A stretch of DNA of 15,778 bases from DASVDK01 sp036381125 [NCBI: Thermodesulfobacteriota bacterium] (lineage in GTDB: Bacteria; DASVDK01): contig DASVDK010000008.1 in assembly GCA_036381125.1 (NCBI GenBank), positions 1 through 15,778 of the forward strand. The letters run 5' to 3'. The translations under genes were made by a program, and so were the position numbers. A model generated the notes under the pieces. The model ran no database searches. It saw nothing but the letters and a program-made list of their open reading frames with translations, and was not told the DNA's origin. Below, one piece after another: positions 283 to 15,778 of this stretch (within the stretch, counting starts at the first letter, position 1; the number at the start of each line of letters is the position of its first letter).

Positions 283-821
283 TGCCGCCCCGTCCCTGGC
301 GCACGAAGACCTCCCGCGAGGTCTACCGCAACCGGTGGATGTCGGTCCGCGAGGACGTGGCCGTGATGCCCGACGGCCGGGAGACCCTGTACGGGGTGAT
401 CACGACCGGCGAGTGCGTCGGCGTGCTCCCGTTCCTCGACCGCGACACCGTCGTCATGACGCAGCAGTACCGGTACGTCTCGAAGCGCCTCACCTGGGAG
501 ATGCCGACCGGCGCCATGCACGCCGGCGAGTCGCGCGAGGCGGCGGCCAACCGCGAGCTGGCCGAGGAGGCCGGGTATCATGCCGGCCGCCTCACCTACC
601 TCACGACCTTCCACTCGAACAAGTCGATCATGGACGAGACCTGCCACGTCTTCGTCGGCGAGGAGCTGATCCCGGCCACGGCGCCGCCGGACGAGACCGA
701 GTTCATCGAGGTGCGGACCTTCCCCTTCGACGAGGTGCTCCGCATGGTGACGGCGGGCGAGATCACCGACGCGATGACCGTCATCGCCGTGCTCGCGGCG
801 GCACGACGGCTGGGGCGCTGA
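282..821 (+). CDS. Nudix hydrolase, ADP-ribose/ADP-sugar pyrophosphatase-like
   Basis: This 179-residue cytosolic protein has a complete Nudix box at residues 77-99: GAMHAGE, seven residues, then RELAEEAGY. This matches GX5EX7REUXEEXGU with all catalytic Glu residues intact (E92, E95, E96). The preceding QQYRYVSKRLTWEMPTG resembles the QxR...WExPaG lead-in of ADP-ribose/ADP-sugar pyrophosphatases, which hydrolyse nucleoside diphosphates linked to another moiety. The length fits that subgroup. I chose ATG 282 because it overlaps the upstream stop (TGATG). An open frame continues upstream to GTG 177, but that extension is Arg-rich out-of-frame reading of the glycosyltransferase. Coupling to a sugar-nucleotide-type transferase would suit clearance of a sugar nucleotide, but the exact substrate is not determinable. 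Confidence 0.9.
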   Translation: MPPRPWRTKTSREVYRNRWMSVREDVAVMPDGRETLYGVITTGECVGVLPFLDRDTVVMTQQYRYVSKRLTWEMPTGAMHAGESREAAANRELAEEAGYHAGRLTYLTTFHSNKSIMDETCHVFVGEELIPATAPPDETEFIEVRTFPFDEVLRMVTAGEITDAMTVIAVLAAARRLGR

Positions 822-1410: not shown

Positions 1411-1440
1411 CACCCGGCCACGCGGCCGGGTGAGGAGGAG
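1411..1440 (+). promoter_or_regulatory. Perfect 9-bp hairpin abutting the arylsulfatase Shine-Dalgarno
   Basis: CACCCGGCC (1411-1419) and GGCCGGGTG (1424-1432) are perfect reverse complements around a four-base ACGC loop. The 3' arm ends exactly where the purine-rich Shine-Dalgarno run AGGAGGAG (1433-1440) begins, two bases before ATG 1443. In mRNA this would place a very stable GC stem against the ribosome-binding site. It could limit initiation or protect the 5' end. It has no U-tract, so it is a poor intrinsic terminator. Confidence 0.5.
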
Positions 1441-1442
1441 CC

Positions 1443-3817
1443 ATGCCGAAGAATCAGGCGAGCGCGGGCGGCCACATGAAGACCTACCCGGAAGGATCGA
1501 CGTTCACCGGCCGCGTCGGGCGCACCTGGCGCGACTCCGAGCCGGCGTTCCCGGTCGAGCCCAGGGCGCCCCCAACGTCGTCTACATCGTCCTGGACGAC
1601 GTGGGCTACGGCTGGTGCGATACCTTCGGCGGGTTGGTCGAGACGCCGAACATCACCCGCCTGGCCGACAACGGCCTGCGCTACACCAACTTCCACACCA
1701 CTGCGCTCTGCTCGCCCACGCGCGCCTGCCTCCTCACCGGGCGCAACCACCACTCGGTCGGCATGGCCAACATCACCGAGTTCGCTACAGGCTTCCCGGG
1801 CTACAACGCCCGCCAGCCGATGGACAAGGCCGGCATCGGCGCCATGCTCCGCACCCACGGCTACAACACCTTCGCGGTGGGCAAGTGGCACAACACCCCC
1901 TCGGAGGAGGTGGGCCCCACCGGCCCCTACGACCGGTGGCCCACCGGCCCACTGTTCGGCTTCGACCGCTTCTACGGCTTCATGGCCGGCGACAACAACC
2001 AGTGGTACCCGAAGCTGCACCGCGACAACACCCCGGTCGACCCGCCCGCCACTCCTGAGGAGGGCTATCACCTCTCCGAGGACCTGGTGGACCGGTCGAT
2101 CGAGCTGATCGCCAACAACGAGTCCGTCGACCCGGAGAAGCCCTGGCTGCTCTACCTCGCCTTCGGCGCCTGCCACGCCCCGCACCACGTCCCCAAGGAG
2201 TGGATCGACAGGTACACGGGCAAGTTCGACATGGGCTGGGACCGGTACCGCGAGGCGGTGCTCGCCCGCCAGAAGCAGGCGGGTACGGTCGCCGAGCGCG
2301 CCGTGCTCTCACCCATGATGGAGGGGATCCCCAGGTGGGACGACCTGTCGGCCGAGCAGAAGCGCCTGTACGCGCGCATGGCCGAGGTCTACGCCGGCTT
2401 CCTCTCGCACGCCGACCATCAGATCGGCCGGCTGGTCGACTTCCTCCGGGAGGCGGGCGACCTCGACAACACGCTGATCTTCGTCTTCATCGGCGACAAC
2501 GGCTCGTCCGGCGAGGGCACGCTCGACGGGCTCTTCAACGAGATGAGCCTGGCCGCCAACGCCCCCGAGACGCTCGAGTTCAAGCTCCAGCGCATCGACC
2601 GGCTCGGCCTCCCCGGCTCGTACAACCACTACCCGGTCGGCTGGGCGATGGCCGGCAATACCCCCTTCAAGTTCTGCAAGCAGTACGTGCACTTCGGCGG
2701 CATCCGCAATCCGCTGGTGGTGCACTGGCCGAAGGGCATCGCGGCCAGGGGGGAGATCCGCCGCCAGTTCCACCACGTCATCGACATCGTGCCGACCATC
2801 CTGACGGCGGCCGGCGTCGAGCCCCCGTCGATCGTCAACAGCGTGCAGCAGGCGCCCATCGAAGGGGTGCCGATGAACTACTCCTTCGACGACGCCGGCG
2901 CGCCGACCACGCACCCGGCGCAGTACTTCGAGATGCTGGGCAATCGCGGTCTCATCCAGGATGGCTGGAAGATCGTGACGTACAACGGCCGGCTGCCGTG
3001 GGAGAGCCGCTCGAAGTTCGCCAGCATCGACGAGCAGCGCTGGGAGATGTACCACATCGACGAGGACCCGGCGGAGGCGAACGACCTGATCAAGGGCCGC
3101 AGCCTGGGCGATCTCAACGATCCGATGGTGCAGAGGTTCGTCGATCTGGTCGGCCTGTGGTGGGCGGAGGCGGGCCGGTACGACGTCCTGCCGCTGGACG
3201 ATCGCTTCCAGGAGCGGTTGCTCGGCCGCGGCGACCTCTACTCCACTCGCGAGCAATTGACCTTCTACCCCGGCGCGGTGCGCATCCCGGAAGGGAACGC
3301 GCCCGACACCAAGAACCGCTCCTGGACCATGACCGCGCACGTGGAGATCCCGAAGGGCGGCGCCGAGGGGCCGATCTGCGTCATGGGCGGCGATACCGGC
3401 GGCTGGTCGCTCTACGTGAAGGACGACAAGGCGGTCTACTGCTACAACCTCGCCGCCTCGCAATTCACCTACATCCGTGCGGCCAACGCGCTCACGCCCG
3501 GGCGGCACGCCATCCGGTACACGTTCGAGAAGACCGGCCAGGAGCCGACCGGCGCCGGCGGCGTGGGCCGCCTGTACGTCGACGACACGCTGGTCGCGGA
3601 GGGACAGATCCCCCGCACAGCGGCCTTCGGCTACTCGCTGGACGAGACCTTCGACGTGGGCTGCGACACCGGGGCGCCGGTGACCGACGAATACCCGGCC
3701 ATGGCGGCGTTCACCGGCAGTATCCTCAAGATCGGCTTCGACCTGAAGCCCGACCTGACGCTCGATCGCGAGGCGCATCGGGAGGTGACGGTGAAGGCCG
3801 CGATGATCAGGCAGTAG
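1443..3817 (+). CDS. Arylsulfatase (type I, formylglycine-dependent), frameshifted near the N-terminus
   Basis: A large sulfate-ester hydrolase of the alkaline phosphatase superfamily. The metal-binding pair is in VLDDVGYG (Asp codons 1595-1600). The sulfatase signature CSPTRACLLTGRN starts at the Cys codon 1709-1711, the residue converted to formylglycine. FIGDNGSSGEGT (near 2485) is the second metal-site region. After about 3290 comes a beta-rich, concanavalin/LamG-like C-terminal domain common in this roughly 780-residue subgroup. No signal peptide is visible. The family N-terminus (MPKNQASAGG through FPVEPRAP) reads from ATG 1443, behind a perfect Shine-Dalgarno, but the rest (GAPNVVYIVLDD onward) is in the next frame, so there is a shift near 1560-1572. 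The catalytic frame can be opened only from GTG 1430, which lies inside the upstream hairpin. Restoring 10 bases gives a 794-residue protein. No formylglycine-generating enzyme is in the window. Confidence 0.85.
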
Positions 3818-4222: not shown

Positions 4223-4717
4223 CTACTCGTCCTTGCGCGTCTCCCGGGCATGGAGGCAGAACTCCCCGGCGATCGGCTGCACGAGCCGCTCGAAGTCGGG
4301 GTACCCCATCCGCACGACCTCGTGGTGGTTGCCGGCCCGGAAGAAGACGTCGGCGCTCCTCGGCAGGCAGGCGTCGACGTAGACCGGCAGGTTGTAGAGG
4401 TTGCCGAAGGGCGGCATCGCGCCGGTCTCGCAGTCCGGGAAGAGTTCCGCGATCTCCCCCTCGGAGGCGAGCGAGAGCTTGCGCGTGCCCCGCTCCCGCC
4501 CGAGCGCCGCGAGGTCGATCCGGCAGGGGGCCGGCAGCACCACCATGAGGTACCGCGCGCCGTCCTCCCGGACCACGAGCGCCTTGGCCAGCTCCCGGCC
4601 GGGAACGTGGCTCGCCTGCGCCACCTCCTGAGCGGTGAACGCCTCCCGGTGGGGCAGGAGCTGGTAGTTGACGCGCTGCTCGTCCAGGAATCGCCTCAGT
4701 CGTTCGGTGAGCGCCAT
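4223..4717 (-). CDS. YbaK/EbsC-family aminoacyl-tRNA deacylase (proofreading domain)
   Basis: A 164-residue single-domain cytosolic protein of the YbaK/ProX/INS fold, whose members hydrolyse mischarged aminoacyl-tRNAs in trans. Visible signatures are the N-terminal LLPHREAFTAQEVAQASHVPG (residues 20-40), the conserved Lys of ELAKALVV (K45), and GAMPPFG (99-105), the substrate-loop motif of the family. The C-terminal FFRAGNHHEVVRMGYPDFER is typical of a subgroup often annotated as YbaK/prolyl-tRNA editing-related. I chose ATG 4717 because GGAGG lies about six bases upstream on the minus strand. The open frame continues to 4813, but that extension is Arg-rich and has no such site. It stands alone and convergent to the relic region. 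Which mischarged tRNA it clears cannot be told. Confidence 0.85.
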   Translation of the reverse strand: MALTERLRRFLDEQRVNYQLLPHREAFTAQEVAQASHVPGRELAKALVVREDGARYLMVVLPAPCRIDLAALGRERGTRKLSLASEGEIAELFPDCETGAMPPFGNLYNLPVYVDACLPRSADVFFRAGNHHEVVRMGYPDFERLVQPIAGEFCLHARETRKDE

Positions 4718-5391
4718 GGCGATCCTCCCTCTGTCTTCCGCGACGAAGGACCGTCTGCGCAGGCTCCGTACCCGCAAACGGCCAGTCCTGGCCGCCCCGG
4801 ACGCGGTTCCCACACGACTCCGGCGATCGGCACGGCGGGGTGGTCGATCCGTTCGCCCGCGCGGCGACGTTCAGGCGGCGACCGGCGCGACGTCGGCGGC
4901 TACCGGGGCTTCTTCCTCACCCCGGTGCAGGAGGAGGACGGCAACTTCATCGTGGACGCGGGGCAGACACGGCTCGGCATAGGCGCCTCGGGACCCGGCA
5001 GCTTCGAGGGCGGCAGGCTCTCCGGTCTCCTCTCCGCCGACGTCCCGAAGCGCGGCGAGAGCGGGACCGCGCGGGACTCCACCCGGATGGACTACGACCC
5101 GGTTCGGCACGAGTCGGGGCCGGCGCCGTTCGGCAGGCTTCGGATCCGGGTCGGCCGAACGACGGCGTCTTCGGCACCGGCGTCACGAACGATCGAGCCG
5201 GTGGCATCCTCTGGCAGTCGCGGACCTCGGACCGGGCGTCGTGGCCGCCAGCGGCGTCGCCGGACGGGAGCGGTTCGGGGCCGCGGTGATTCCTCTCCGA
5301 GAGGGCGAGCGCCTGTGCCATTGGCGGCCACCGGCCGGCCGATCACCCCCGCTGCGCCGGCGCCGCCGGCGCGCGGGGCCAGGTCCCCTCC
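4718..5391. other. 674-base gap with a frame-hopping coding trace, no intact gene
   Basis: No gene with a convincing start and family match lies here. On the plus strand there is a run of protein-like, G/C-third-position sequence that changes frame twice. About 4900-5140 (frame 2) reads GFFLTPVQEEDGNFIVDAGQ and GIGASGPGSFEGGRLSGLLS. About 5150-5220 (frame 1) reads PNDGVFGTGVTNDRAGGILW. About 5226-5320 (frame 3) reads LGPGVVAASGVAGRERFGAA then VIPLREGERLCHW. The order and codon style suggest one decayed gene, but I do not recognise the family. The first ~180 bases (4718-4890) show nothing beyond the upstream region of the minus-strand YbaK gene. Confidence 0.4.
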
Positions 5392-5841
5392 TTACGCGGC
5401 CGGCGCCAGCGCCGACGTGCAGAAGGGACAGCGCCGTGCCTTGACGGCCACGCTCGAGAGGCACTCGGGGCAGGCGCGCGTCGTGGGCGTTGCGGCGGCC
5501 GGGGCCGGGCTCTCGCGCTTCAACCGGTTGATCTGCTTCACCACCAGGAAGAGCGCGAAGGCGACGATCAGGAAGCTGATGACGGCATTGACGAAGAGGC
5601 CCAGGTTGAGCGTCGGCGCGCCCGCCACCCTCGCGGCTTCCAGCGTCGGGTAGCTCTCGCCGTTCAGGGCGATGAAGAGGTTCGTGAAGTCGATCCCGCC
5701 TACCAGAAGCCCGAGCACCGGGTTGATCAGGTCGTCGACCAGTGAGGTCACGACCCTGCCGAAGGCGGCCCCGATGACCACGCCGATCGCGAGGTCGATC
5801 GCGTTGCCTTTGATCGCGAACTCGCGGAACTCCTTGAGCAT
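5392..5841 (-). CDS. mscL: Large-conductance mechanosensitive channel MscL with C-terminal zinc ribbon
   Basis: A 149-residue inner-membrane channel that opens under membrane tension to release solutes during hypo-osmotic shock. The N-terminus [20 protein letters not shown] (1-20) and the pore-lining [19 protein letters not shown] are the classic MscL TM1. The second helix is at about residues 82-102 ([20 protein letters not shown]), followed by KQINRLKRE. Typical MscL ends in a short charged helix. Here a Pro/Ala-rich linker leads to CPEC (C124, C127) and CPFC (C138, C141), a four-Cys zinc-ribbon-like tail seen in some bacterial MscL proteins. The start is supported by AAGGAG (5848-5853 on the minus strand), five to six bases upstream. 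It is transcribed away from the MFS gene, with 254 bases between the two starts. Confidence 0.95.
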
Positions 5842-6095: not shown

Positions 6096-7571
6096 ATGCC
6101 CGTGAAGCGCGGCTGGGTCCTCGCCGCCACCATCCTCGGCTCGACCCTCGGCTTCCTCGAGAGCTCCATCACCAACATCGCCCTCCCCGCCATGCAGCAG
6201 GCGTTCGGCGCCGACGCGGCCGAGATGCAGTGGGTCGTGAACGCCTACATGCTCGCCTTCGGCGCGCTCATCCTCGTGGGCGGCGCGGCGGGCGACCGCT
6301 TCGGGCGTCGGCGCGTCTTCGGCCTCGGGGTCGTCGTCTTCACCGCCGCCTCCGTGGCCTGCGGGCTCGCACCGGGCGTCGCCCTGCTCCTCGCCGCACG
6401 CGCCGTGCAGGGCCTCGGAGCGGCGCTCCTCGTCCCGAGCAGCCTCGCCATCCTCACGGCCGCCTTCCCGCCGGAGCGCCGTGGGCGGGCCATCGGCACC
6501 TGGTCGGGCGCCTCGGCCATCGTGACCGCGGGCGGGCCGATCCTCGGGGGTCTCCTCGTCGACGTCGTGTCGTGGCGGGCCGTCTTCTTCGTCATCGTGC
6601 CGGTGGCGCTGGCGACGCTGGCCGTGGCCGAGCGGCACGTGCCGGAGAGCCGCGCCGCGGGCGTCGCGGGGCCGCTCGACCTCCCGGGGGCCGCGCTGGC
6701 CATCGCCGGCTTCGGGGCGGTGACCTTCGGTCTCATCGAGCGGTCGCCCCTGGTATTCGCGGTCGGCCTCCTCCTCCTCGGCGCCTTCCTGGCGGTCGAG
6801 GCGCGGGCAAGGGCGCCGATGATGCCGCTCTGGCTCTTCCGGTCGCGCGTCTTCGCGGGCGCGAACCTCCTGACCTTCCTCCTCTACGGGGCCCTCGGCG
6901 CGGCGGTGTTCTTCCTCCCCTTCGACCTCGTCCAGGTGCAGGGGTACTCCGCCACCGCCACCGGCGCGGCCTTCCTGCCCTTCGCCCTGATCGTCGGTGT
7001 CCTCTCGCGATGGTCCGGGGGCCTGCGCGACCGCTACGGGGCCCGTGGGCCGCTCGTCGCGGGGCCGGCCGTCTCGGCCGTCGGCTTCGCCGGCCTCGCC
7101 TGGCCCGGGATCGGCGGCTCGTACTGGACGACGTTCTTCCTCCCCATGGTCGTCCTCGGCCTCGGCATGGCCGTGACCGTGGCGCCCCTCACCGCCGCCG
7201 TCATGGGCGCCCAGGACGAGGCGCACGCCGGCGTCGCCTCGGGCGTCAACAACGCCGTCGCCCGGCTGGCGTCCCTCATCGTCGTGGCGCTCGCCGGCCT
7301 GCTCGCCCTCGCCGTCTTCGTGCCCGCCCTCGAGTCGCGCGTGGCGTCGCTCGGCGTTCCGCCCGACGTGGCGCGGGCCCTGCTGGCCGAGGCGCCCCGC
7401 CTGGCCGACGCCGGGCCGCCCGACGGCGTGACGGGCGCCCTTCGGGCCGCCCTCGAGCGGGCGGTCGACGAGGCCTTCGTGGAGGCGTTCCGGTCGGTCG
7501 CGGGCCTCTGCGCCGCGATGTCGGCCGGCAGCGCGCTCGTCGCGGCGCGCCTGGTCGACGCGCGGCGATAG
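6096..7571 (+). CDS. MFS transporter, DHA2 (EmrB/QacA-like, 14-helix) family
   Basis: A 491-residue inner-membrane transporter, probably a proton-driven exporter of drugs or metabolites. Motif A, GGAAGDRFGRRR (residues 62-73), sits in the loop after TM2. The antiporter motif C region, TAGGPILGGLL (144-154), is followed by WRAVFFVIVP (160-169), the WRxxFxxNxP-like pattern of 14-helix DHA2 proteins. The N-terminus ATILGSTLGFLESSITNIALP is the usual TM1 with an acidic residue. I chose ATG 6096; GTG 6102 is an alternative. Neither has a good Shine-Dalgarno, and the open frame extends to 5991 without family-like sequence. The C-terminus carries an unusually long hydrophilic segment (about residues 420-470) before the last helix. 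The substrate is unknown. A close paralogue begins at 15713. Confidence 0.9.
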   Translation: MPVKRGWVLAATILGSTLGFLESSITNIALPAMQQAFGADAAEMQWVVNAYMLAFGALILVGGAAGDRFGRRRVFGLGVVVFTAASVACGLAPGVALLLAARAVQGLGAALLVPSSLAILTAAFPPERRGRAIGTWSGASAIVTAGGPILGGLLVDVVSWRAVFFVIVPVALATLAVAERHVPESRAAGVAGPLDLPGAALAIAGFGAVTFGLIERSPLVFAVGLLLLGAFLAVEARARAPMMPLWLFRSRVFAGANLLTFLLYGALGAAVFFLPFDLVQVQGYSATATGAAFLPFALIVGVLSRWSGGLRDRYGARGPLVAGPAVSAVGFAGLAWPGIGGSYWTTFFLPMVVLGLGMAVTVAPLTAAVMGAQDEAHAGVASGVNNAVARLASLIVVALAGLLALAVFVPALESRVASLGVPPDVARALLAEAPRLADAGPPDGVTGALRAALERAVDEAFVEAFRSVAGLCAAMSAGSALVAARLVDARR

Positions 7572-7594
7572 CGCCGACCGGAACGGCGGCTCAT

Positions 7595-7624
7595 TTGTTT
7601 CAGATTCCGTGGACCTGATATAGT
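7595..7624 (+). promoter_or_regulatory. Sigma-70-like promoter of the RpiR-aminotransferase-BKACE-TRAP cassette
   Basis: TTGTTT (7595-7600) and TATAGT (7619-7624) are separated by 18 bases. The -10 matches five of six consensus positions. This AT-richer patch stands out in a GC-rich window and sits in the 91-base gap between the MFS stop and the first plausible RpiR start, so initiation near 7631 is expected. Confidence 0.65.
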
Positions 7625-7628
7625 TGTT

Positions 7629-7638
7629 GCAGGCCTGC
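7629..7638. promoter_or_regulatory. Palindrome at the predicted transcription start, candidate regulator site
   Basis: GCAGGCCTGC is a perfect 10-base palindrome placed just downstream of the -10 and over the predicted start site. That position is suited to repression by the adjacent RpiR protein. A looser TCAG/CTGA dyad lies between the -35 and -10. A 10-base palindrome can occur by chance in GC-rich DNA. Confidence 0.35.
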
Positions 7639-7692
7639 CCCGGCCGGTGTACCGTGCCGGACATGGGAGGCCAGGCATCGGAGCCGTCGCCC

Positions 7693-8610
7693 ATGGAGTT
7701 CGCCGAGCTCAGCCGATCGATCGCGCAGCGGTTCCCCGCGCTCAGCCGGGAGCTGCAGCGGTCGGCGCGCTACCTGGTGGACCACCCGGACGACGTCGCC
7801 CTCCTGTCCATGCGTCGCGTCGCCGCGAGCGCCGGCGTCCAGCCCGCCACCCTGCTCAGGCTCGCCCGCCGCCTCGACTTCGACGGGTACCCCGCGCTCC
7901 GGCAGGTGTTCGTCGAGCGGCTCAGGCGCCGCACGACGAGCTACTCGCGCCGCGCGCTCGAGCTGCAGGGTCGCGGCTCGGGGGACAGGGCCGAGACGGC
8001 CGTGCGCGAGACCATCGCGGGGCACCTGCGCAACCTCCAGGCGAGCCTCGACCGCAACGGCGTCGACCGGTTCCTGGCCTGCGCGGCGGCGCTCGAGGGG
8101 GCGCGCACCCTCTACGTCCTCGGCCTTCGGAGCTGCTTCCCGCTCGCCTTCTTCTTCCACTACGTCCATCGGCTGTTCCGTGACAACGGCGTGCTCCTCG
8201 ACGGACGGGGCGGCACGTTCCCCGACGACCTGCGCGGCATCGGGACCCGGGACGTCCTCCTCGCCATCAGCCTCGCGCCGTACACGCGCGACACCGTGAG
8301 GGCGGTCGAGTTCGCGGTGGGGCGGGGCGCGACCATCGTGGCGCTCACCGACAGCCCGGTCTCCCCGCTCGCACGACTGGCGCGGCATACGCTGCTCTTC
8401 ACCACGGACACGCCGTCGTTCTTCCACTCGGTGACCGCCGCCATGTCGATCGTCGAGGCGCTGCTCGCGCTCCTCGTCGCCAGGGGGGGCGACAGGGCCG
8501 TCGCCGCCATCTCCGCGAGCGAGGCGCAGCTCGCCTCGTTCGCGGCCTACTGGCGCGAGCGCGCGCCGAAGCGCCCGGCGAGGCGGACGCGGCGTCGACG
8601 GACCGGTTAG
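7693..8610 (+). CDS. MurR/RpiR-family transcriptional regulator (HTH + SIS)
   Basis: From this start the protein has 305 residues, normal for the family. Residues 1-80 form the HTH_6 domain, with VAASAGVQPATLLRLARRLDF (43-63) as the recognition region. Residues about 128-260 form a SIS domain (RTLYVLGLRS, then DVLLAISLAPYTRDTVRAVE and GATIVALTDS), which in characterised relatives binds phosphosugars or other small acids. ATG 7693 has GGAG nine bases upstream. ATG 7663 is an in-frame alternative without a Shine-Dalgarno. The gene directly follows the promoter and precedes the aminotransferase by 31 bases, so it probably controls the cassette and itself. The Arg-rich C-terminal tail (PKRPARRTRRRRTG) is unusual. 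The SIS ligand is likely the imported substrate or an early intermediate (inference). Confidence 0.88.
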   Translation: MEFAELSRSIAQRFPALSRELQRSARYLVDHPDDVALLSMRRVAASAGVQPATLLRLARRLDFDGYPALRQVFVERLRRRTTSYSRRALELQGRGSGDRAETAVRETIAGHLRNLQASLDRNGVDRFLACAAALEGARTLYVLGLRSCFPLAFFFHYVHRLFRDNGVLLDGRGGTFPDDLRGIGTRDVLLAISLAPYTRDTVRAVEFAVGRGATIVALTDSPVSPLARLARHTLLFTTDTPSFFHSVTAAMSIVEALLALLVARGGDRAVAAISASEAQLASFAAYWRERAPKRPARRTRRRRTG

Positions 8611-8641
8611 CCACGAACGCAGAGGGTACGGGAGCCACAGC

Positions 8642-9976
8642 ATGAGCCACGTCCTCCACCGCCACACCCGCCTCGACCCGCCGGTCGCCGTCGGCGGCGA
8701 AGGGGTCTTCCTCTTCGACGCGACCGGCAAGCGCTACCTCGACGCCTCCGGCGGCGCGGCGGTCTCGTGCCTGGGTCACGGCCACCCGGCCGTGATCGCC
8801 GCGATCCGGGCGCAGGCCGAGCGGCTCGCCTACGCGCACACGAGCTTCTTCACGACCGAGCCGGCCGAGGCGCTGGCCGACCGCCTCGCGGCCGGCGCCC
8901 CGCCGGGGCTCTCGCACGTCTACTACGTCTCGGGCGGCTCCGAGGGGGTGGAGGCGGCGCTCAAGATGGCCCGCCAGTACTTCGTCGAGATCGGCGAGCC
9001 GGAGCGCCGCCACGTCATCGCCCGCTGGCAGAGCTACCACGGCAACACGCTCGGCGCGCTGGCGGTCGGCGGCAACCGGTGGCGGCGCGAGCCGTTCGCG
9101 CCGCTCCTGATCGACGCGCCGCACATCGCCCCCTGCTTCGCCTATCGCTTCAAGCGGGAGGACGAGACGGAGGAGGCCTACGGCCGTCGCGCCGCCGACG
9201 AGCTGGAGGCCGAGATCCTCCGCCTGGGGCCCGGGACGGTCGCCGCCTTCATCGCCGAGACCGTCGTCGGCGCCACCGCCGGCGCGGTGCCGCCGGCACC
9301 CGGCTACTTCCGGCGAATCCGCGAGATCTGCGACCGCTACGGGGTCCTGCTGATCCTCGACGAGGTCATGTGCGGCATGGGCCGGACCGGCACGCTGCAC
9401 GCCTGCGAGCAGGAGGGGATCTCCCCCGACCTGCTCGTCGTGGCCAAGGGGCTCGGCGGGGGCTACCAGCCGATCGGCGCCGTCCTCCTCGCCCGGAAGA
9501 TCTACGAGGCGTTCGAGCGCGGCTCCGGGTTCTTCCAGCACGGCCACACCTACATCGGCCACCCCATCGCCTGCGCCGCCGCCCTCGCGGTGCAGGAGAC
9601 GATCGAGGCGGAGGGGCTCCTGGGCCGCGTCCGGACGATGGGGCGCCGGCTGCGGGAACGGCTCGAGGCCCGCTTCGGCGGCCATCCCCACGTGGGGGAC
9701 ATCCGGGGGCGCGGCCTCTTCCAGGCGATCGAGCTGGTCCGGGACCGGGCCACGAAGGCGCCGTTCGACCCCGGCCTTGCCGTGCACAACCGGATCAAGC
9801 GCGAGGCGATGGCGCGCGGGCTCCTCGTCTACCCCATGGGCGGGACGATCGACGGCCGGTCGGGCGACCACGTCCTCCTCGCGCCGCCCTTCGTCGTCGA
9901 GGAGGCGCACCTCGAGACGATCGTCGAGCGGCTCGGCGACGCGGTCGACGCCGCGCTCGCGGCGGCCCGGACATGA
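8642..9976 (+). CDS. Class III (fold-type I) PLP-dependent aminotransferase
   Basis: A 444-residue cytosolic PLP enzyme of the omega/beta-amino acid transaminase group. [18 protein letters not shown] is the phosphate-binding and helix region, and WQSYHGNT follows it. D240 in [14 protein letters not shown] binds the pyridine nitrogen. K269 in [16 protein letters not shown] is the Schiff-base lysine. The length is as expected for the family. GGGAG lies seven bases upstream of ATG 8642. Its stop overlaps the ATG of the BKACE gene (ATGA), which argues for coupled synthesis. Class III enzymes act on amines away from an alpha-carboxylate, so a beta-amino acid donor would give exactly the beta-keto acid a BKACE enzyme uses. 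This is inference, and homologues are often labelled only as aspartate aminotransferase family. Confidence 0.93.
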
Positions 9977-10812
9977 CGCCGGTCATCGTGGCCGTGGCGC
10001 CCAACGGCGCCTCGAAGACCAGGGCCGACCACCCGGCCCTGCCGATCACGGCGGAGGAGATCGCAACGTGCGCCCGCGCCTGCCGCGACGCCGGCGCCGC
10101 GATGATCCACCTCCACGTGCGCGACCGCGAGGGACGCCACACGCTCGACGTCGACGCCTACCGCGAGGCGACGGCGGCGATCCGCTGCGCCGTCGGGGAC
10201 GGGCTGGTCATCCAGGCGACCACCGAGGCGGCCGGGGTCTACGGGCCCGAGGCGCAGATGGCCCTCGTCCGGGCCCTCCGGCCGGAGGCGGTGTCGCTCG
10301 CGATCCGGGAGATCCTGCCGCCGGGGCGGGACGAGCGGGAAGCGGCCGCGTTCCTGGCATGGCTGGCGGCCGAGCGGATCGTGCCGCAGTACATCCTCTA
10401 CTCGACCGAGGACCTCACGCGCTTCCGGGAGCTGCGCAGGCGGGGCCTGATCCCCGGCTCGCGGCCGTTCGCGCTCTTCGTCCTCGGCCGCTACACTGTC
10501 GGGCAAGAGTCCGATCCGCGTACCCTTCTGCCCTTCCTCGCCTCCCTGGACGAGGCGGAGGAGATGGTCTGGGCGGTCTGCGCCTTCGGCCGCCGGGAAG
10601 CCGCCTGCGTGCTGGCGGCGGCGGCCCTGGGGGGACACGCCCGGGTCGGTTTCGAGAACAACCTGCTGCTCGCCGACGGACGGCGGGCGCCCGACAACGC
10701 CGCCGTCGTGGCGCAGCTGGTCGATGGCCTTCGCGTCATCGGGCGCCCGCTGGCGGACGCCGCGGGCGCTCGCGCGCTGCTCGGCGGATCGGGGGGCGCG
10801 TCCACCCCGTGA
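9973..10812 (+). CDS. BKACE (DUF849) beta-keto acid cleavage enzyme
   Basis: A 279-residue TIM-barrel enzyme of the family first known from Kce, 3-keto-5-aminohexanoate cleavage enzyme. Members convert a beta-keto acid plus acetyl-CoA to acetoacetate plus a new acyl-CoA. The metal ligands are in IHLHVRD (H46, H48) and GFENN (E228), matching the Zn site of characterised members. The N-terminus [20 protein letters not shown] carries Ser at residue 14, where Kce has a functional Glu in its TGAExxR stretch, so a substrate other than 3-keto-5-aminohexanoate is likely. The ATG overlaps the aminotransferase stop, and the TAXI binding-protein gene follows after 11 bases. A generic DUF849 role is well supported. 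The actual beta-keto acid is unknown. Confidence 0.92.
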
Positions 10813-10823
10813 GAGGAGGGAGC

Positions 10824-11804
10824 ATGACCGCAAGACCTGTAGCCACGATTCTCGCCACGGCATTCGCCGTCGCCACGGTCGCCGCCGGCGCCCCCGAGGC
10901 CTCGGCGCAGCAGCGGTTCGTCACGATCGGGACGGGCGGCGTCACCGGCGTCTACTACGCGGCCGGCGGCGCGATCTGCCGCCTCGTCAACAAGGACCGC
11001 CGCGAGCACGGCATCCGCTGCTCGGTCGAGTCGACCGGCGGCTCCGTGTTCAACGTCAACACCATCCAGACCGGCGAGCTGGACCTCGGCATGGCCCAGT
11101 CCGACGTGCAGTTCCAGGCGTACAACGGCACCGCCGGGTTCCAGGGGAAGCCGTTCAAGGAGCTTCGGGCCGTCTTCTCTCTCCACCCCGAGCCGGTCAC
11201 GATCGTCGCCCGCCGCGACTCCGGGATCAAGACGCTGGCCGACCTCAAGGGCAAGCGCTTCAACGTCGGCAACCCCGGCTCCGGCACCCGGGCGCTCTCG
11301 GAGCAGCTCATCGCCGCCCTCGGCTGGAAGATGAGCGACTTCGCCCTCGCGTCGGAGCTCAAGGCCGACGAGCACGGCCAGGCGCTCTGCGACAACAAGA
11401 TCGACGCGTTCCTCTACGCCGTCGGCCACCCGGCCGGCAACATCCAGGACGCGACGACGTCGTGCGACAGCGTCCTCGTCCCCGCGACCGGGCCGGTCGT
11501 CGACGGCCTGCTCAAGCAGCACCCGTACTTCGCCAAGGCCACCATCCCGGGCGGCATGTACCGGGGCAACCCGAACCCGACCGAGACCTACGGCGTGCTC
11601 GCCACGTTCGTCACGTCGACCCGGACGCCCGACGAGGTCGTCTACCGGATCGTCAAGGCGGTCTTCGACAACTTCAACGAGTTCAAGAGCCTCCACCCGG
11701 CCTTCGCGAACCTCGAGCCGGCGCGGATGATCACCGACGGCGTCTCGGCGCCGCTGCACGACGGCGCGCTCCGCTACTACAAGGAAAAGGGCTGGGTCAA
11801 GTAA
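10824..11804 (+). CDS. TAXI-family TRAP transporter solute-binding protein
   Basis: A 326-residue periplasmic binding protein. Residues 1-28 form a Sec signal peptide with a hydrophobic core [16 protein letters not shown] and an A-x-A site (ASA before QQRF). The mature start [20 protein letters not shown] is the diagnostic TAXI (TRAP-associated extracytoplasmic immunogenic) motif. [19 protein letters not shown] is the mid-domain ligand loop, and the C-terminus YYKEKGWVK is typical. It captures an organic acid or amino acid and delivers it to the fused permease. AGGAGGG lies just upstream of ATG 10824, the strongest ribosome site of the operon, as suits an abundant binding protein. It is separated from its permease by the structured gap at 11805-11996. 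TAXI ligands known in other systems include glutamate and 2-oxoglutarate, but none can be assigned here. Confidence 0.95.
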
Positions 11805-11810
11805 GACGTC

Positions 11811-11846
11811 GGCCGATCGCGTCCGGGGCCGGTCGCGCGATCGGCC
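11811..11846 (+). other. Intercistronic hairpin I, 11-bp perfect stem
   Basis: GGCCGATCGCG (11811-11821) and CGCGATCGGCC (11836-11846) are exact reverse complements around a 14-base loop, starting six bases after the binding-protein stop codon. There is no U-tract. The position and strength suit a 3'-end stabiliser or partial terminator that would leave more binding-protein mRNA than permease mRNA. Confidence 0.65.
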
Positions 11847-11866
11847 CCGGCGGCGTCCCGTCGACG

Positions 11867-11886
11867 GCGGCGCCGCAAGGCGCCGC
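11867..11886 (+). other. Intercistronic hairpin II with GNRA-type GCAA tetraloop
   Basis: GCGGCGCC (11867-11874) pairs perfectly with GGCGCCGC (11879-11886) around GCAA, an exceptionally stable GNRA tetraloop. It is the second of several dyads in the same short gap. Confidence 0.6.
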
Positions 11887-11899
11887 TCGGGCGAGGCGC

Positions 11900-11983
11900 C
11901 ACCGGCTCTTGCGGCGCGAAGCGCCGCGGTGAGCGGAGCGCGGGCTTGCCCAGCGCGGAGCGAAAGCTGGCGCCGAGCCGGTG
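11900..11983 (+). other. Predicted three-way-junction RNA directly upstream of the TRAP permease ribosome site
   Basis: CACCGGCTC (11900-11908) and GAGCCGGTG (11975-11983) form a perfect 9-bp closing stem. Between them lie GCGGCGC-GAA-GCGCCGC (11911-11927) and GCGCGGG-CTTG-CCCaGCGC (11938-11956, one bulge). The 3' closing arm ends one base before the Shine-Dalgarno AAGGAGG (11984-11990), so folding could tune permease translation. The region also repeats GCGGAGCG/GCGAAGCG-like words, a look also shared by dispersed intergenic repeats. Confidence 0.5.
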
Positions 11984-11996
11984 AAGGAGGCTCGTC

Positions 11997-14615
11997 ATGG
12001 CCGAAGAGACCACCACGAAGCCGCCGCTCGGCGCGGCGGACCTCGAGCAGCTCGTTGCCGAGGCCGACACCGGCGGTCGCAAGCCGACCGGCGTCGCCCG
12101 CCGGGTGCTCTTCGTCGTCGCCGTCGCCTGGTCGGCGTTCCAGCTCTGGTACGCCTCGCCGCTCCCCTTCGTCCTCGGCGTCGGGATCCTGAACGACACG
12201 CAGGCGCGGGCGATCCACCTCGCGTTCGCCTTCTTCCTGGCCTTCCTGGCCTACCCAGCGTCGAAGCGGGCGCCGCGGACGCGGATCCCGATCGCGGACT
12301 GGGTGCTCGCGCTGGTCGCGGCCGTCACCTCGGCCTACCTGTTCGTGTTCCACCGGGAGCTCGCGCTCCGCCCCGGCATGCCGACCGCGGCCGACCTCGT
12401 GACTGCGCTCCTCGGGATCGTCCTGCTCCTCGAGGCGACCCGCCGGGCCCTCGGGCCGCCCATGGTGGTCGTGGGGCTCGTCTTCCTCGCGTACACGTTC
12501 CTCGGCCCCTACATGCCCGAGGTCATCCAGCACAAGGGCGCCTCGCTCACCAAGACGCTGACCCACCAGTGGCTGACCACCGAAGGGGTGTTCGGCACCG
12601 CGCTCGGCGTCTCGACGAGCTTCGTCTTCCTCTTCGTCCTCTTCGGGTCGCTCCTCGAGAAGGCGGGCGCCGGCAACTACATGATGCAGGTCTCCTTCGC
12701 CCTCCTCGGGCACCTGCGCGGCGGGCCGGCGAAGGTCGCGGTCGTCTCCTCCGCCCTGAACGGCGTCGTCTCCGGCTCGTCGATCTCCAACGTCGTCTCG
12801 GGCGGCATCTTCACCATCCCGATGATGCGGCGGACCGGCCTCAGCGCCGTCAAGGCCGGCGCCATCGAGACCGCCTCCTCCATCAACGGGCAGATCATGC
12901 CCCCCGTCATGGGGGCCGCCGCCTTCCTGATGGTGGAGTACGTCGGGATCCCGTACTCCGAGATCATCCGGCACGCGTTCCTGCCGGCGGTGATCTCGTA
13001 CGTCGCGCTCTTCTACATCGTGCACATCGAGGCGCTGAAGCTCGGCACGCAGCCGCTCGCGCGCCGGACGAGCCGGCCGCTCCCGATGCGGCTCCTCAGG
13101 CTCGGCCTCGGGATCGCCGGCACGATCGTCCTCGCCGGGGTCGTCTACTACGGCGTCGGCGCCCTCGAGGCGCTCCTCGGCTCCGCCGCCGGCCCGGTGC
13201 TCGTCGTCCTCCTCGTCGCCGCCTACGTCGCCTCGGTCTGGTACGCCTCGCGCTTCCCCGACCTCGAGCTGGACGACCCGAACGCGCCGGTGTTCCACCT
13301 GCCGGAGACCTGGCCGACGGTCCGCACCGGCCTCCACTTCCTCCTCCCGCTGGCCGTCCTCCTCTGGTGCCTGATGGTCGAGATGCTCTCGCCCGGGCTC
13401 TCGGCCTTCTGGGGCACGGCGGCCATGATCGCCATCGTCCTCACCCAGCGGCCGCTCTTCGCGTGGTTCCGCGGGCAGGGCGCCGTCCCGGCCTTCCGGC
13501 AGGGGTGGCGCGACTTCATCGAGGGGATGGAGCTCGGCGCGCGCAACATGATCGCCATCGGCATCGCCACCGCCACGGCCGGGATCGTCGTCGGCACGAT
13601 CACGCTCACCGGCCTCGGCTTCATGATGACCGACTTCGTCGAGTTCATCTCCGGCGGCAACGTCATCCTCATGCTCGTGCTCACGGCGATGATCAGCCTC
13701 GTCCTCGGCATGGGGATCCCGACGACCGCCAACTACATCATCGTCGCCACCCTCATGGCGCCGGTCATCGTCGAGCTGGGGGCGCAGGCGGGGCTCGCCA
13801 TCCCGCTGATCGCCGTCCACCTCTTCGTCTTCTACTTCGGGATCATGGCCGACGTGACGCCGCCGGTCGGCCTCGCGTCGTACGCGGCGGCCGCCATCTC
13901 GGGCGCCGACCCGATCAAGACCGGTCTCCAGGGCTCGGTCTACGCCCTCCGCACGGTGCTCCTGCCGTTCTTCTTCATCTTCGAGCCGACCCTCCTCCTG
14001 ATGGACCTGCACTCCTGGGGGGAGACGCTGCTCGTGATCGCCGCCGCCACGCTCGGGATGCTCGTCTTCGCCGCCGCGACCATGGGCTTCTTCCTGACCC
14101 GCAGTCGGCTCTGGGAGACCGCGGCCCTCCTCCTCGTCACCTTCACGCTCCTTCGGCCCGGCTTCTGGATGGACCGGATCGCCCCGCCCTACGAGGACGC
14201 CTCGCCGGCGCGGCTCGAGGAGGTCGTGGCCGCGACCCCCCCGAAGGGGCGGTTGCAGATGCGCGTCGAGGGGCTCAGCATCGAGGGGGACGACGTGCGG
14301 AAGGTGGTGAGCGTGCGCCTCGACACGGCCGGGACGCCGGCCGAGCGCCTCGCCGCCGCCGGCCTCGCGCTCCGGCGGACCGGCGAGGACCTGCAGGTGG
14401 CGCAGGTGCGGTTCGGCAGCTACGCCGAGCGGCTCGGCCTCGAGCCCGGCTTCCGGATCACGGCGGTCAGGGTTCCGACCGCCCGCCCGCCGGCGGCGCT
14501 CTTCTACATCCCGGCGCTCCTGCTCCTCGGCGTCGTGGTCGCCGCGCAGCGCGCGCGACGCGGGGCTCGTCCGGCGGCGACCCCGGGCGTTCCCGATCGG
14601 CCGGCGGCGGCTTGA
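11997..14615 (+). CDS. Fused TRAP transporter permease (small + large subunits) with DUF3394 C-terminal domain
   Basis: An 872-residue inner-membrane protein that uses a cation gradient to import the solute delivered by the TAXI protein. The first ~190 residues carry helices corresponding to the small DctQ-like subunit. The DctM-like body follows, with the fused-TRAP signatures GVVSGSSISNVVSGGIFTIP (256-275) and SSINGQIMPPVMGAAAF (294-310). The more usual second motif has ASTGG rather than SSING, a mild deviation in the likely substrate/ion region. From about 720 to 835 lies DUF3394 (RLEEVVAATPPKGRLQMRVE through FRITAVRV), a PDZ-like extension known from TRAP permeases, followed by one more helix (836-856). 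ATG 11997 has an ideal AAGGAGG six bases upstream. A strong hairpin follows the stop. Confidence 0.95.
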   Translation: MAEETTTKPPLGAADLEQLVAEADTGGRKPTGVARRVLFVVAVAWSAFQLWYASPLPFVLGVGILNDTQARAIHLAFAFFLAFLAYPASKRAPRTRIPIADWVLALVAAVTSAYLFVFHRELALRPGMPTAADLVTALLGIVLLLEATRRALGPPMVVVGLVFLAYTFLGPYMPEVIQHKGASLTKTLTHQWLTTEGVFGTALGVSTSFVFLFVLFGSLLEKAGAGNYMMQVSFALLGHLRGGPAKVAVVSSALNGVVSGSSISNVVSGGIFTIPMMRRTGLSAVKAGAIETASSINGQIMPPVMGAAAFLMVEYVGIPYSEIIRHAFLPAVISYVALFYIVHIEALKLGTQPLARRTSRPLPMRLLRLGLGIAGTIVLAGVVYYGVGALEALLGSAAGPVLVVLLVAAYVASVWYASRFPDLELDDPNAPVFHLPETWPTVRTGLHFLLPLAVLLWCLMVEMLSPGLSAFWGTAAMIAIVLTQRPLFAWFRGQGAVPAFRQGWRDFIEGMELGARNMIAIGIATATAGIVVGTITLTGLGFMMTDFVEFISGGNVILMLVLTAMISLVLGMGIPTTANYIIVATLMAPVIVELGAQAGLAIPLIAVHLFVFYFGIMADVTPPVGLASYAAAAISGADPIKTGLQGSVYALRTVLLPFFFIFEPTLLLMDLHSWGETLLVIAAATLGMLVFAAATMGFFLTRSRLWETAALLLVTFTLLRPGFWMDRIAPPYEDASPARLEEVVAATPPKGRLQMRVEGLSIEGDDVRKVVSVRLDTAGTPAERLAAAGLALRRTGEDLQVAQVRFGSYAERLGLEPGFRITAVRVPTARPPAALFYIPALLLLGVVVAAQRARRGARPAATPGVPDRPAAA

Positions 14616-14630
14616 GCGGCCGAACGACCA

Positions 14631-14669
14631 GGCGGGGGCGGCCCTCCGGTTCGAGGCGCCGCCTCCGCC
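14631..14669 (+). terminator. Hairpin terminator candidate ending the TRAP cassette
   Basis: GGCGGGGGCGGC (14631-14642) pairs with GCCGCCTCCGCC (14658-14669) over 12 positions including one G-U. The loop itself closes further by CCTC (14643-14646) with GAGG (14653-14656), leaving a single bulged base. It starts 16 bases after the permease stop. There is no T-run, so termination would have to be of the U-less kind or aided by Rho. Confidence 0.5.
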
Positions 14670-14703: not shown

Positions 14704-15552
14704 GTGACTGCCGACGCGCGTGGCGCCCTCTACCTCACCGGGGCGGTCGCGGCCCTCACCGTGGTGTCCGCGATCATCAAGCACCTCACGGCCGACCTGC
14801 CGGTCGCGGTCGTCGTCTTCTTCCGGCACCTGGCGGCGACGCTCTGCTTCCTCCCGATGGTCGCCCGATCCGGCTTCGGGCTCCTCCGGACCGAGAACCT
14901 CCCCGGCCACGTCTGGCGAGCCACGCTCGGGTACACGAGCTTCATGGCGTTCGCCTACGCCCTGGAGCAGCTCCTGCTGGCGGACGCGATCGCCCTCGCC
15001 TTCACCGCGCCGCTCTGGTCCACCCTGCTCGCCGTCGTCGTCCTGCGCGAGGCGGTCTCGCGCGGCCGCGTCCTCGCCCTCCTCGCCGGCCTCCTCGGCG
15101 TCCTGCTGATCGCCCGGCCGGCCGGGCAGTTCGAGCCCGCGTCGGTCGTCGCCGTCGCCGGTGCGGGCTGCACGAGCCTCGCGATGCTCGCCGTGAAGCA
15201 GCTCTCCCGCACCGAGCCGCCCGAGCGGATCGCGTTCTACTTCATGGCGATCGGCTCGGTGCTGAGCGCCGTGCCGGCGGCCTTCGCCTGGCAGACGCCG
15301 GCCGTCGCGACGGTTCCGTGGTTCGTCGTCATCGGCGTGCTGTCGTGGGCGGGGCAGATCTGCCTCTCGCGCGGCTACGCCATCGGGCAGTTCTCCCGGA
15401 TGGCCCTCGTGGACCTCCTCCGGCTCCCGTTCTCGCTGCTCCTCGGCCTGGTCGTCTTCGGCGAGGCGCCCGACCTCCTCGCCGCGGCCGGGATGGCCCT
15501 CATCGGGGCCGCGTCCGTGTACACGGTCATCGAGGGGCGACGGAGCGGCTGA
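14704..15552 (+). CDS. DMT-superfamily (EamA) transporter
   Basis: A 282-residue inner-membrane protein with about ten hydrophobic helices arranged as two EamA repeats. The first repeat ends with the typical DAIALAFTAPLWSTLLAVVV, LREAVSRGRVL and LLGVLLIARP. The second ends with GLVVFGEAPDLLAAAGMALI then GAASVYTVIE. Members export amino acids, purines or other metabolites; the cargo here is unknown. I chose GTG 14704 because the first helix follows about ten residues later; no Shine-Dalgarno is evident. A nine-codon open frame (ATG 14678, stop 14705-14707) overlaps this start as GTGA. The upstream hairpin suggests a transcript separate from the TRAP cassette, but the same orientation and an 88-base gap leave read-through possible. 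Confidence 0.88.
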   Translation: MTADARGALYLTGAVAALTVVSAIIKHLTADLPVAVVVFFRHLAATLCFLPMVARSGFGLLRTENLPGHVWRATLGYTSFMAFAYALEQLLLADAIALAFTAPLWSTLLAVVVLREAVSRGRVLALLAGLLGVLLIARPAGQFEPASVVAVAGAGCTSLAMLAVKQLSRTEPPERIAFYFMAIGSVLSAVPAAFAWQTPAVATVPWFVVIGVLSWAGQICLSRGYAIGQFSRMALVDLLRLPFSLLLGLVVFGEAPDLLAAAGMALIGAASVYTVIEGRRSG

Positions 15553-15712: not shown

Positions 15713-15778
15713 GTGCGGGTCCGCGGGGTACTGCTCGCCACCATCCTCGGCTCGAGCCTGGAGTTCCTCGAGGCGTCC
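15713..15778 (+). CDS. MFS transporter, DHA2-like, N-terminal part (3' truncated by window)
   Basis: Twenty-two codons are visible from GTG 15713: VRVRGVLLATILGSSLEFLE then AS. This matches the start of the MFS exporter at 6096 (RGWVLAATILGSTLGFLESS) at most positions, so a second 14-helix exporter of the same subfamily begins here. The characteristic first helix with an acidic residue in FLE is present. The GTG is the only reasonable start in frame near the helix. A weak GGGTGAG sits a few bases upstream. The rest lies outside the window. Confidence 0.72.
   Translation, partial: MRVRGVLLATILGSSLEFLEAS

What the first reader, a model, noticed from the sequence alone, without database searches (positions are those of the whole stretch)
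7595..14669. Self-contained RpiR / aminotransferase / BKACE / TAXI-TRAP catabolic cassette with an unassigned substrate
The sequence shows one promoter, a regulator, two enzymes joined by ATGA, a TAXI binding protein 11 bases later, its fused permease and a terminal hairpin, all on one strand. From family knowledge, class III transaminases can make beta-keto acids from beta-amino acids, and BKACE enzymes cleave beta-keto acids with acetyl-CoA. Inferred pathway: TRAP uptake of an amino acid, transamination to a beta-keto acid, then BKACE cleavage to acetoacetate plus a new acyl-CoA, with RpiR sensing the substrate. I know no described system with this exact composition.
Basis: partly seen in the sequence, partly recalled or inferred. 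Interest (0 to 1): 0.7.

Follow-up and report, generated by a model that had tools for sequence, protein, structure and literature searches.

The report
Amino-acid uptake operon with atypical BKACE
This is a real, widely conserved bacterial gene set that seems to import an acidic amino acid and break it down, but its supposed carbon-carbon cleaving enzyme belongs to a branch that lacks two residues reported as needed for that reaction, so its last step is probably something not yet described.

Summary
The gene set is as described: RpiR regulator, class III aminotransferase (AT), DUF849/BKACE protein, TAXI receptor and fused TRAP permease on one strand. No sigma-70 promoter or U-tailed terminator was found; two operator-like palindromes 29 bp apart precede RpiR (26 of 31 AT-linked RpiR genes have such a site, against 40 of 6012 control stretches).
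Synteny is real: of 36 alphaproteobacterial genomes with this kind of DUF849 (289 searched), 28 have the AT within 1.1 kb. The same order is annotated on a Thalassospira plasmid.
In this DUF849 clade Kce Glu143 and Asp231 are Ile and Asn (87 of 87 aligned, window included); in BKACE15 the Glu143 equivalent is the proposed base and Glu-to-Leu abolished activity. Zinc ligands and Arg226 remain.
In 25 of 85 loci a 3-hydroxyacyl-CoA-dehydrogenase-type gene takes the AT's place (fused once), which favours a beta-keto acid intermediate. The TAXI pocket resembles a glutamate receptor (10 of 13 sites). Best guess: catabolism of an acidic beta-amino acid ending in non-canonical DUF849 chemistry; substrate unproven.

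The parts
7587..7602 (+). distal operator-like site CGGCTCATTTGTTTCA (predicted RpiR site 1)
   Evidence: 4 mismatches to TGAAACANNTGTTTCA, at -76 from the RpiR ATG; weak alone, in register with relatives
7616..7631 (+). proximal operator-like site TGATATAGTTGTTGCA (predicted RpiR site 2), 29 bp after site 1
   Evidence: only match with up to 3 mismatches in the window; 2 of 200 shuffles have one; 26 of 31 AT-linked RpiR genes have a site, 40 of 6012 control stretches
7663..8610 (+). RpiR-family regulator (HTH_6 + SIS), 315 aa
   Evidence: Pfam over cut-off; ATG shared with relatives
8642..9976 (+). class III aminotransferase, PRK07483 type
   Evidence: NF005685 793.6 bits, cut-off 485
9973..10812 (+). 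DUF849/BKACE-family protein, 279 aa, of the I143/N231 ('ENN') clade; ATGA overlap with the AT
   Evidence: PF05853 247.2 bits; clade signature; AF2 model pLDDT 94.5, best solved match Kce 2y7f Z 35.7, rmsd 2.3, 266 aligned
10108..10116 (+). codons 46-48, zinc ligands His46 and His48 (kept)
10225..10227 (+). codon 85, Glu replacing Kce Gly84
   Evidence: 87 of 87 in the clade
10306..10311 (+). codons 112-113, Arg-Glu replacing Kce Gly110-Thr111
   Evidence: R 83 of 87, E 87 of 87
10393..10395 (+). codon 141, Ile in place of Kce Glu143 (BKACE15 Glu171)
10657..10659 (+). codon 229, Asn in place of Kce Asp231
10824..11804 (+). TAXI-type TRAP solute-binding protein with a glutamate-type pocket
   Evidence: TIGR02122 361.8 bits, cut-off 84.35; pocket residues
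11805..11996 (+). structured TAXI-permease gap (GC-rich hairpins), possibly lowering permease expression (inference)
   Evidence: z -3.31, 0 of 200 shuffles; repeats
11997..14615 (+). fused TRAP permease with C-terminal DUF3394 domain
   Evidence: TIGR02123 714.6 bits, cut-off 320.65; DctM and DUF3394
14631..14669 (+). GC-rich hairpin after the permease, no T run
   Evidence: 10 of 200 shuffles fold as well

Best explanation
An RpiR-controlled uptake and catabolic operon for an acidic (glutamate-like) amino acid, most likely a beta-amino acid. RpiR binds twin sites upstream of its own gene (predicted). The TAXI-TRAP importer, with a glutamate-type pocket, brings in the substrate (predicted). 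The class III aminotransferase removes the amino group to give a beta-keto acid (inferred). The DUF849 protein, a zinc TIM barrel in which two BKACE catalytic acids are replaced by Ile and Asn and which has gained Glu85, Arg112 and Glu113, then processes that beta-keto acid by a reaction other than the standard acetyl-CoA-dependent BKACE cleavage, for example decarboxylation or a hydrolytic or rearranged cleavage (inferred).
For: Shown: gene order and coupling; AT and this kind of DUF849 within 1.1 kb in 28 of 36 genomes; the AT stop overlaps the predicted DUF849 start in 25 of 30 same-strand relatives, 15 of them by exactly 4 bases. Operator: 26 of 31 against 40 of 6012. Signature: I at 143 and N at 231 in 87 of 87 clade rows, window included; the 35 other rows (34 DUF849 proteins and Kce) all have D231 and 30 have E143; the register is the same in phmmer, MAFFT and hhalign. 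E171L of BKACE15 (= Kce E143) has no activity (PMC11961710 section 9). Beta-keto acid: a 3HCDH-type gene replaces the AT in 25 of 85 loci, with one natural fusion, L075. Acidic amino acid: TAXI keeps 10 of 13 pocket residues of the glutamate receptor VcGluP, among them Y45 and Q93, whose change to Ala costs 213- and 990-fold (PMC11574862, passages); three rhizobial loci (L002, L065, L077) have a GlnH-type ABC receptor gene near the AT and no TAXI found; site 14 of the DUF849, where Kce uses Glu to hold its substrate's amino group (PMC10470551, passage), is Arg or Lys in 31 of 31 AT-linked loci counted besides the window.
Against: No biochemistry exists. The window itself has Ser, not Arg, at site 14. 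The base in BKACE is disputed: earlier work proposed the Arg226 equivalent, which is kept (PMC11961710), and the new Glu85 might replace Glu143. Tyr45 and Gln93 are common in TAXI proteins (78% and 54%, PMC11574862). In up to 59 of 87 places the AT stands without this DUF849 at the cut-off used (at least one of these, L144, has a more diverged member), so DUF849 is not obligatory. Of 69 distinct clade proteins from genome contigs, 20 had neither partner found within 3.5 kb, short contigs among them. One pattern used to find most members contained GFENN, so their invariance is partly built in. The partner swap is only one or two events on the tree.
Confidence: 0.5

Rival explanations
1. One reading: the DUF849 is a working BKACE that condenses the beta-keto acid with acetyl-CoA to acetoacetate plus a shorter acyl-CoA; another residue (for example the new Glu85) replaces Glu143.
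For: PF05853 247.2 bits; best solved match is Kce itself, Z 35.7; zinc ligands and Arg226 kept in 87 of 87; Glu85 in 87 of 87. The same two-step logic (beta-alanine transaminase plus BKACE) works in an engineered strain (PMC11961710, passages).
Against: E143 and D231, named crucial in Kce (PMC5741869, passage), are Ile and Asn; E171L of BKACE15 is inactive; none of the four NCBIfam models that match reaches its cut-off (best 138.9 against 382).
Confidence: 0.25
2. Specific form of the best explanation: beta-glutamate (3-aminoglutarate) is imported, transaminated to 3-oxoglutarate, and decarboxylated by the DUF849 to acetoacetate and CO2; the dehydrogenase-linked cousins do the same from 3-hydroxyglutarate imported through a tricarboxylate-type receptor.
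For: [quoted passage not shown] glutamate-type TAXI; Arg or Lys at site 14 in AT-linked members besides the window; a TctC-like receptor near 17 of 21 dehydrogenase-linked ones (Pfam run on one); 3-oxoacid CoA-transferase genes beside one AT.
Against: Whether this clade is G6 could not be checked (paper not held; supplements not available). The window has Ser14; dehydrogenase-linked members mostly have Tyr14 (21 of 22). Beta-glutamate is described mainly as a methanogen osmolyte (PMC1224877, passages); the one search made listed no title on its catabolism.
Confidence: 0.15
3. The transporter and aminotransferase handle an ordinary alpha-amino acid such as glutamate, and the DUF849 acts on an unrelated metabolite as another zinc enzyme, as cis-epoxysuccinate hydrolase does within the same fold family.
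For: TAXI pocket close to VcGluP; AT with TAXI and permease but without DUF849 in 6 of 12 such loci fetched (L133, L136, L138, L139, L142, L143); cis-epoxysuccinate hydrolase structures match the model at Z 32.
Against: Tight AT-DUF849 adjacency and overlap; a 3HCDH-type gene replaces the AT in 25 of 85 loci.
Confidence: 0.1

Closest known systems
Thalassospira marina CSC3H3 plasmid genes CSC3H3_RS21250-RS21270 (L005)
   Same: Same five genes in the same order; RpiR 44%, AT 65%, DUF849 57%, TAXI 65%, permease 60% identical
   Different: Only annotated, no function given; a UspA gene follows; Arg at site 14
Kce and BKACE enzymes (2y7d-g; BKACE15/PdKce 8rio, 8rip, 9hnf)
   Same: Fold (Z 35.7 to 2y7f), zinc ligands, Arg226, Tyr145
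   Different: Glu143 is Ile, Asp231 is Asn, Gly84 is Glu, Gly110-Thr111 is Arg-Glu
BsfD of the flavophos pathway (PMC12871164 section 8)
   Same: A DUF849 protein whose changed active site goes with a different reaction
   Different: BsfD lacks the Tyr, which is kept here; different gene context
VcGluPQM, glutamate TAXI-TRAP (PMC11574862, passages)
   Same: 10 of 13 pocket residues; the paper describes a C-terminal extension of the permease, and the window's permease has DUF3394 there (equivalence not tested)
   Different: Met201 is Ala, Ser40 is Gly, Asp157 is Thr; here it sits with catabolic enzymes
Engineered beta-alanine transaminase plus BKACE module (CORE cycle, PMC11961710, passages)
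   Same: Transaminate a beta-amino acid, then pass the beta-keto acid to a DUF849 enzyme
   Different: Synthetic; canonical BKACE; makes formyl-CoA and acetoacetate
Pseudomonas beta-lysine pathway (6-N-acetyl-beta-lysine transaminase, EC 2.6.1.65; recalled; one search found no paper)
   Same: Transamination of a beta-amino acid, then acetoacetate-releasing cleavage (recalled)
   Different: Genes and sequences not compared here

Membership tests
DUF849/BKACE fold family (PF05853) | profile match over curated cut-off | tested here: met
   247.2 bits, cut-off 24.8
Functional BKACE (acetyl-CoA-dependent beta-keto acid cleavage) | zinc ligands His46, His48, Glu230 | tested here: met
   kept in 87 of 87 clade rows, window included
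Functional BKACE (acetyl-CoA-dependent beta-keto acid cleavage) | Arg226 | tested here: met
   87 of 87
Functional BKACE (acetyl-CoA-dependent beta-keto acid cleavage) | Tyr145, said to be in all BKACE sequences (PMC12871164) | tested here: met
   Tyr in 87 of 87; but 14 of the 35 other rows have Phe there, so it is a weak criterion
Functional BKACE (acetyl-CoA-dependent beta-keto acid cleavage) | Glu143 (BKACE15 Glu171, proposed catalytic base) | tested here: not met
   Ile in 87 of 87, window included
Functional BKACE (acetyl-CoA-dependent beta-keto acid cleavage) | Asp231 | tested here: not met
   Asn in 87 of 87, window included
Functional BKACE (acetyl-CoA-dependent beta-keto acid cleavage) | acetoacetate formation from acetyl-CoA | not testable with these tools
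   needs purified enzyme
DUF849 group G6 (decarboxylating, not BKACE) | active-site signature of the group | not testable with these tools
   original paper not held; only its summary in PMC4922564 section 22 was seen
TAXI-TRAP transporter | TAXI receptor plus fused permease | tested here: met
   TIGR02122 and TIGR02123 over cut-off
Glutamate-type TAXI receptor | key ligand residues Tyr45 and Gln93 | tested here: met
   Met201 is Ala
Glutamate-type TAXI receptor | binding of L-glutamate | not testable with these tools
   needs a binding assay
PRK07483 class III aminotransferase | NCBIfam equivalog cut-off | tested here: met
   793.6 bits, cut-off 485; the model name gives no specific substrate
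RpiR regulator | HTH_6 and SIS domains | tested here: met

The most novel reading that the evidence does not exclude
The I143/N231 clade of DUF849 is a separate enzyme kind with rebuilt catalysis (Glu85, Arg112, Glu113), for instance a zinc beta-keto acid decarboxylase or hydrolase, and its RpiR-AT-DUF849-TAXI operons encode an undescribed route for an acidic beta-amino acid such as beta-glutamate in proteobacteria, with a sister route that starts from the matching 3-hydroxy acid.
Probability: 0.3. Interest if true: 0.7.

Novelty: new variant of a known kind. Interest (0 to 1): 0.5.

Why it matters
A conserved operon with a predicted operator and two alternative partner enzymes gives a short list of substrates to test. 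It shows that PF05853, named 'beta-keto acid cleavage enzyme', includes a distinct clade without two catalytic acids, so automatic names such as '3-keto-5-aminohexanoate cleavage protein' (used for its members) are doubtful for it. If the beta-amino acid reading is right, it would assign genes to the breakdown of acidic beta-amino acids, for which I know none (recalled).

Tried and rejected
Rfam at gathering thresholds: no hit. No host genome is held, so the rest of the pathway in this organism was not examined. Long ORFs in L067, L081 and L082 looked like dehydrogenase-DUF849 fusions, but an in-frame check kept only L075. AT-DUF849 fusions suspected in L020 and L060 were ruled out. Operator scan of 11 genomes with up to 1 mismatch: 7 of 11 have a match, 4 have none; beside cassette sites there are a few others, two of them next to a different RpiR gene (L188, L192), so the palindrome may be shared by several RpiR proteins and no wider regulon is claimed. 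Site 14 against partner enzyme: strong in counts but only one or two switches on the tree, so not used as independent proof. Model coordinates were not in the Python box, so active-site distances were not measured. The upstream gene was first tested in a wrong frame and repeated in frame. In one search the stretch for L012 was wrongly long; one search repeats the count without L012 and without the duplicate L105. Papers not held: the BKACE family study and the Kce structure paper. A search for the beta-lysine precedent found nothing.
Full report
What is there. The window holds five genes on the + strand between an MFS gene that ends at 7571 and an EamA gene that starts at 14704: RpiR regulator 7663-8610, class III aminotransferase (AT) 8642-9976, DUF849/BKACE protein 9973-10812, TAXI receptor 10824-11804 and fused TRAP permease 11997-14615. 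AT and DUF849 overlap as ATGA (9973-9976). The end hairpin is matched by 10 of 200 shuffles, while the TAXI-permease gap is strongly structured (0 of 200).

Is the set conserved? A scan of genome contigs with a six-protein DUF849 alignment returned 80 loci, the best of 542; with 5 plasmid loci, 36 of 85 carry the AT. All five genes occur in 13 of the 85 (L005, L008, L012, L036, L040, L048, L053, L058, L060, L069, L071, L072, L083); 9 of them are collinear as in the window (L005, L008, L040, L048, L053, L060, L071, L072, L083, of which L008 and L060 have a second TAXI gene; counted by eye). Many contigs are cut short. The Thalassospira marina plasmid is annotated with this exact order. As a wider test, 289 alphaproteobacterial genomes were searched: the AT family is in 78 (87 places, E at most 1e-150), DUF849 proteins like this one in 36 (E at most 1e-70), and 28 of the 36 lie within 1.1 kb of an AT. 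Of the 8 others, 5 genomes have no AT at that cut-off and 3 have it elsewhere; 28 of the 31 genomes with both have them together. Up to 59 of 87 AT places lack this DUF849; 59 is an upper bound, because L144 is among them and has a more diverged member beside the AT.

Regulation. Upstream of RpiR in four Thalassospira loci, sites like TGAAACA-NN-TGTTTCA stand about 29 bp apart. Of 31 AT-linked RpiR genes, the window included (L012 cut off, L105 dropped as a duplicate; four of the 31 lie in loci without DUF849: L134, L136, L140, L142), 26 have a site with at most 3 mismatches between 200 bases upstream and 30 bases downstream of the start, against 40 of 6012 random stretches of the same loci. 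The motif was read off L005, L040, L048 and L071, so those four are circular; the other 22 are not, though some are close relatives of each other. Five of 31 lack such a site (L134, L140, L144, L150, L151). In L145 the sites lie between divergent RpiR and enzyme genes. That RpiR binds there is a prediction.

The DUF849 protein. An AlphaFold2 model (pLDDT 94.5) matches Kce 2y7f best (Z 35.7, rmsd 2.3, 266 residues). In an alignment of 122 rows (window, Kce and 120 DUF849 proteins of the loci), 87 rows including the window have Ile at Kce 143 and Asn at Kce 231. The other 35 all have Asp231; 30 have Glu143 and the rest Gln (3), Ala (1) or Gly (1). The register agrees in phmmer, MAFFT and hhalign. 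The 87 form one side of a branch (SH-aLRT 98; quick tree with the three trait columns left out and some long branches among the 35). Eight more diverged proteins (42-51% identical to the window) share the signature: seven found by profile and one beside an AT (L144). Other clade-wide changes: Gly84 to Glu85 (87 of 87), Gly110 to Arg112 (83 of 87), Ser/Thr111 to Glu113 (87 of 87), Glu141 to Gln139 (86 of 87). Bias to note: one of the two patterns used contained GFENN.

What that means. One paper, citing a study of the family, lists H46, H48, E143, R226 and D231 as crucial in Kce (PMC5741869, one passage). In BKACE15, E171 is proposed as the catalytic base for its reaction with malonate semialdehyde; E171L has no activity and E171D 5% (PMC11961710, section 9). 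Tyr173 of that enzyme equals Kce Tyr145 (PMC12871164, section 8), which places E171 at Kce E143, as does the alignment. The original family study divided DUF849 into groups of which two are 'not BKACE', one of them with decarboxylation activity (as reported in PMC4922564, section 22). So membership in PF05853 does not make this a cleavage enzyme, and two tested residues of BKACE are absent. It may still act on a beta-keto acid, and Glu85 might take over as base.

Partner enzymes. In 25 of the 85 loci a 3-hydroxyacyl-CoA-dehydrogenase-type gene lies upstream on the same strand instead of the AT (tblastn with the L075 domain; Pfam run on L075 and L014), and in Acidovorax facilis (L075) the two are one 617-residue protein. 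Among 69 distinct clade proteins from L006-L085, 28 have the AT, 21 the dehydrogenase and 20 neither within 3.5 kb; 17 of the 21 have a Bug/TctC-like receptor nearby (Pfam run on L004 only). Some without either partner have an NMT1-type ABC receptor (L009) or, in L006, an EamA gene overlapping the DUF849 start. Site 14, where Kce Glu14 holds the substrate's amino group (PMC10470551, passage), is Arg or Lys in 31 of 31 AT-linked loci counted besides the window and Tyr in 21 of 22 dehydrogenase-linked ones; the window has Ser, and the tree shows only one or two switches.

Substrate hints. The TAXI receptor matches VcGluP at 10 of 13 pocket sites, including Tyr45 and Gln93 (PMC11574862, passages). 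In four loci (L002, L065, L077, and L140, a second AT copy of the genome of L053) a GlnH-type receptor gene and a C45-type hydrolase gene lie near the AT (NCBIfam run on L140). In L144 and L145 a DAO-GCV_T protein stands beside AT and DUF849; such proteins include N-demethylating dehydrogenases (family knowledge). Of 12 fetched AT loci without DUF849, 6 have TAXI and permease genes, and single ones have 3-oxoacid CoA-transferase genes (L135), a thiolase (L152) or an enoyl-CoA hydratase (L141). Together these point to a glutamate-like amino acid, taken up free or as an N-methyl or N-acyl form, and to a keto acid that needs CoA or C-C chemistry. Beta-glutamate is one candidate among several; nothing here proves it.

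Verdict. Observation mostly right; interpretation half right. The cassette is real and conserved, and five searches of an open-access library listed no title about it; subscription papers are not covered. Its named key reaction is doubtful. Novelty: a new variant of a known kind of catabolic operon, with an enzyme clade that may be more.

Noticed in passing
window 6096-7571 and about 15714-15778: An MFS transporter gene (MFS_1 180 bits) lies upstream of the cassette; by eye, the reading frame at the window's right end begins with a similar sequence, so the cassette may be flanked by two MFS paralogues.
   Followed up: partly
window 1430-3817: Sulfatase-family protein (PF00884 214.8 bits plus SGSH_C).
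   Followed up: no
window 4223-4813 (-): Aminoacyl-tRNA editing domain protein (PF04073).
   Followed up: no
window 5392-5841 (-): MscL mechanosensitive channel.
   Followed up: no
window 294-821: NUDIX-domain protein.
   Followed up: no
window 14704-15552: EamA transporter on the same strand, 88 bases after the permease. A search with this protein found nothing beside the AT-bearing cassettes, but in L006 a different EamA gene overlaps the start of a clade DUF849 gene, so a link is not excluded.
   Followed up: partly
window 11805-11996: Strongly structured TAXI-permease intergenic region (z -3.31).
   Followed up: partly
L008, L020, L028, L060, L080: Two or three TAXI receptor genes in one cassette, some with quite different pocket residues.
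   Followed up: no
L075 8957-10810: Natural fusion of a 3-hydroxyacyl-CoA dehydrogenase and an I143/N231-type DUF849 in Acidovorax facilis.
   Followed up: yes
L188, L192: A different RpiR gene in two Thalassospira genomes has a similar TGAAACA-NN-TGTTTCA site near its own start.
   Followed up: partly
L012 3119-4387, L058 10819-12099: A DAO-domain gene on the opposite strand sits between DUF849 and TAXI (Pfam run on the L012 copy).
   Followed up: no
G022 contig C115: An AT of this family lies about 2 kb from a DUF849 protein with a high score to the general family model, possibly a canonical one; its signature was not checked.
   Followed up: no
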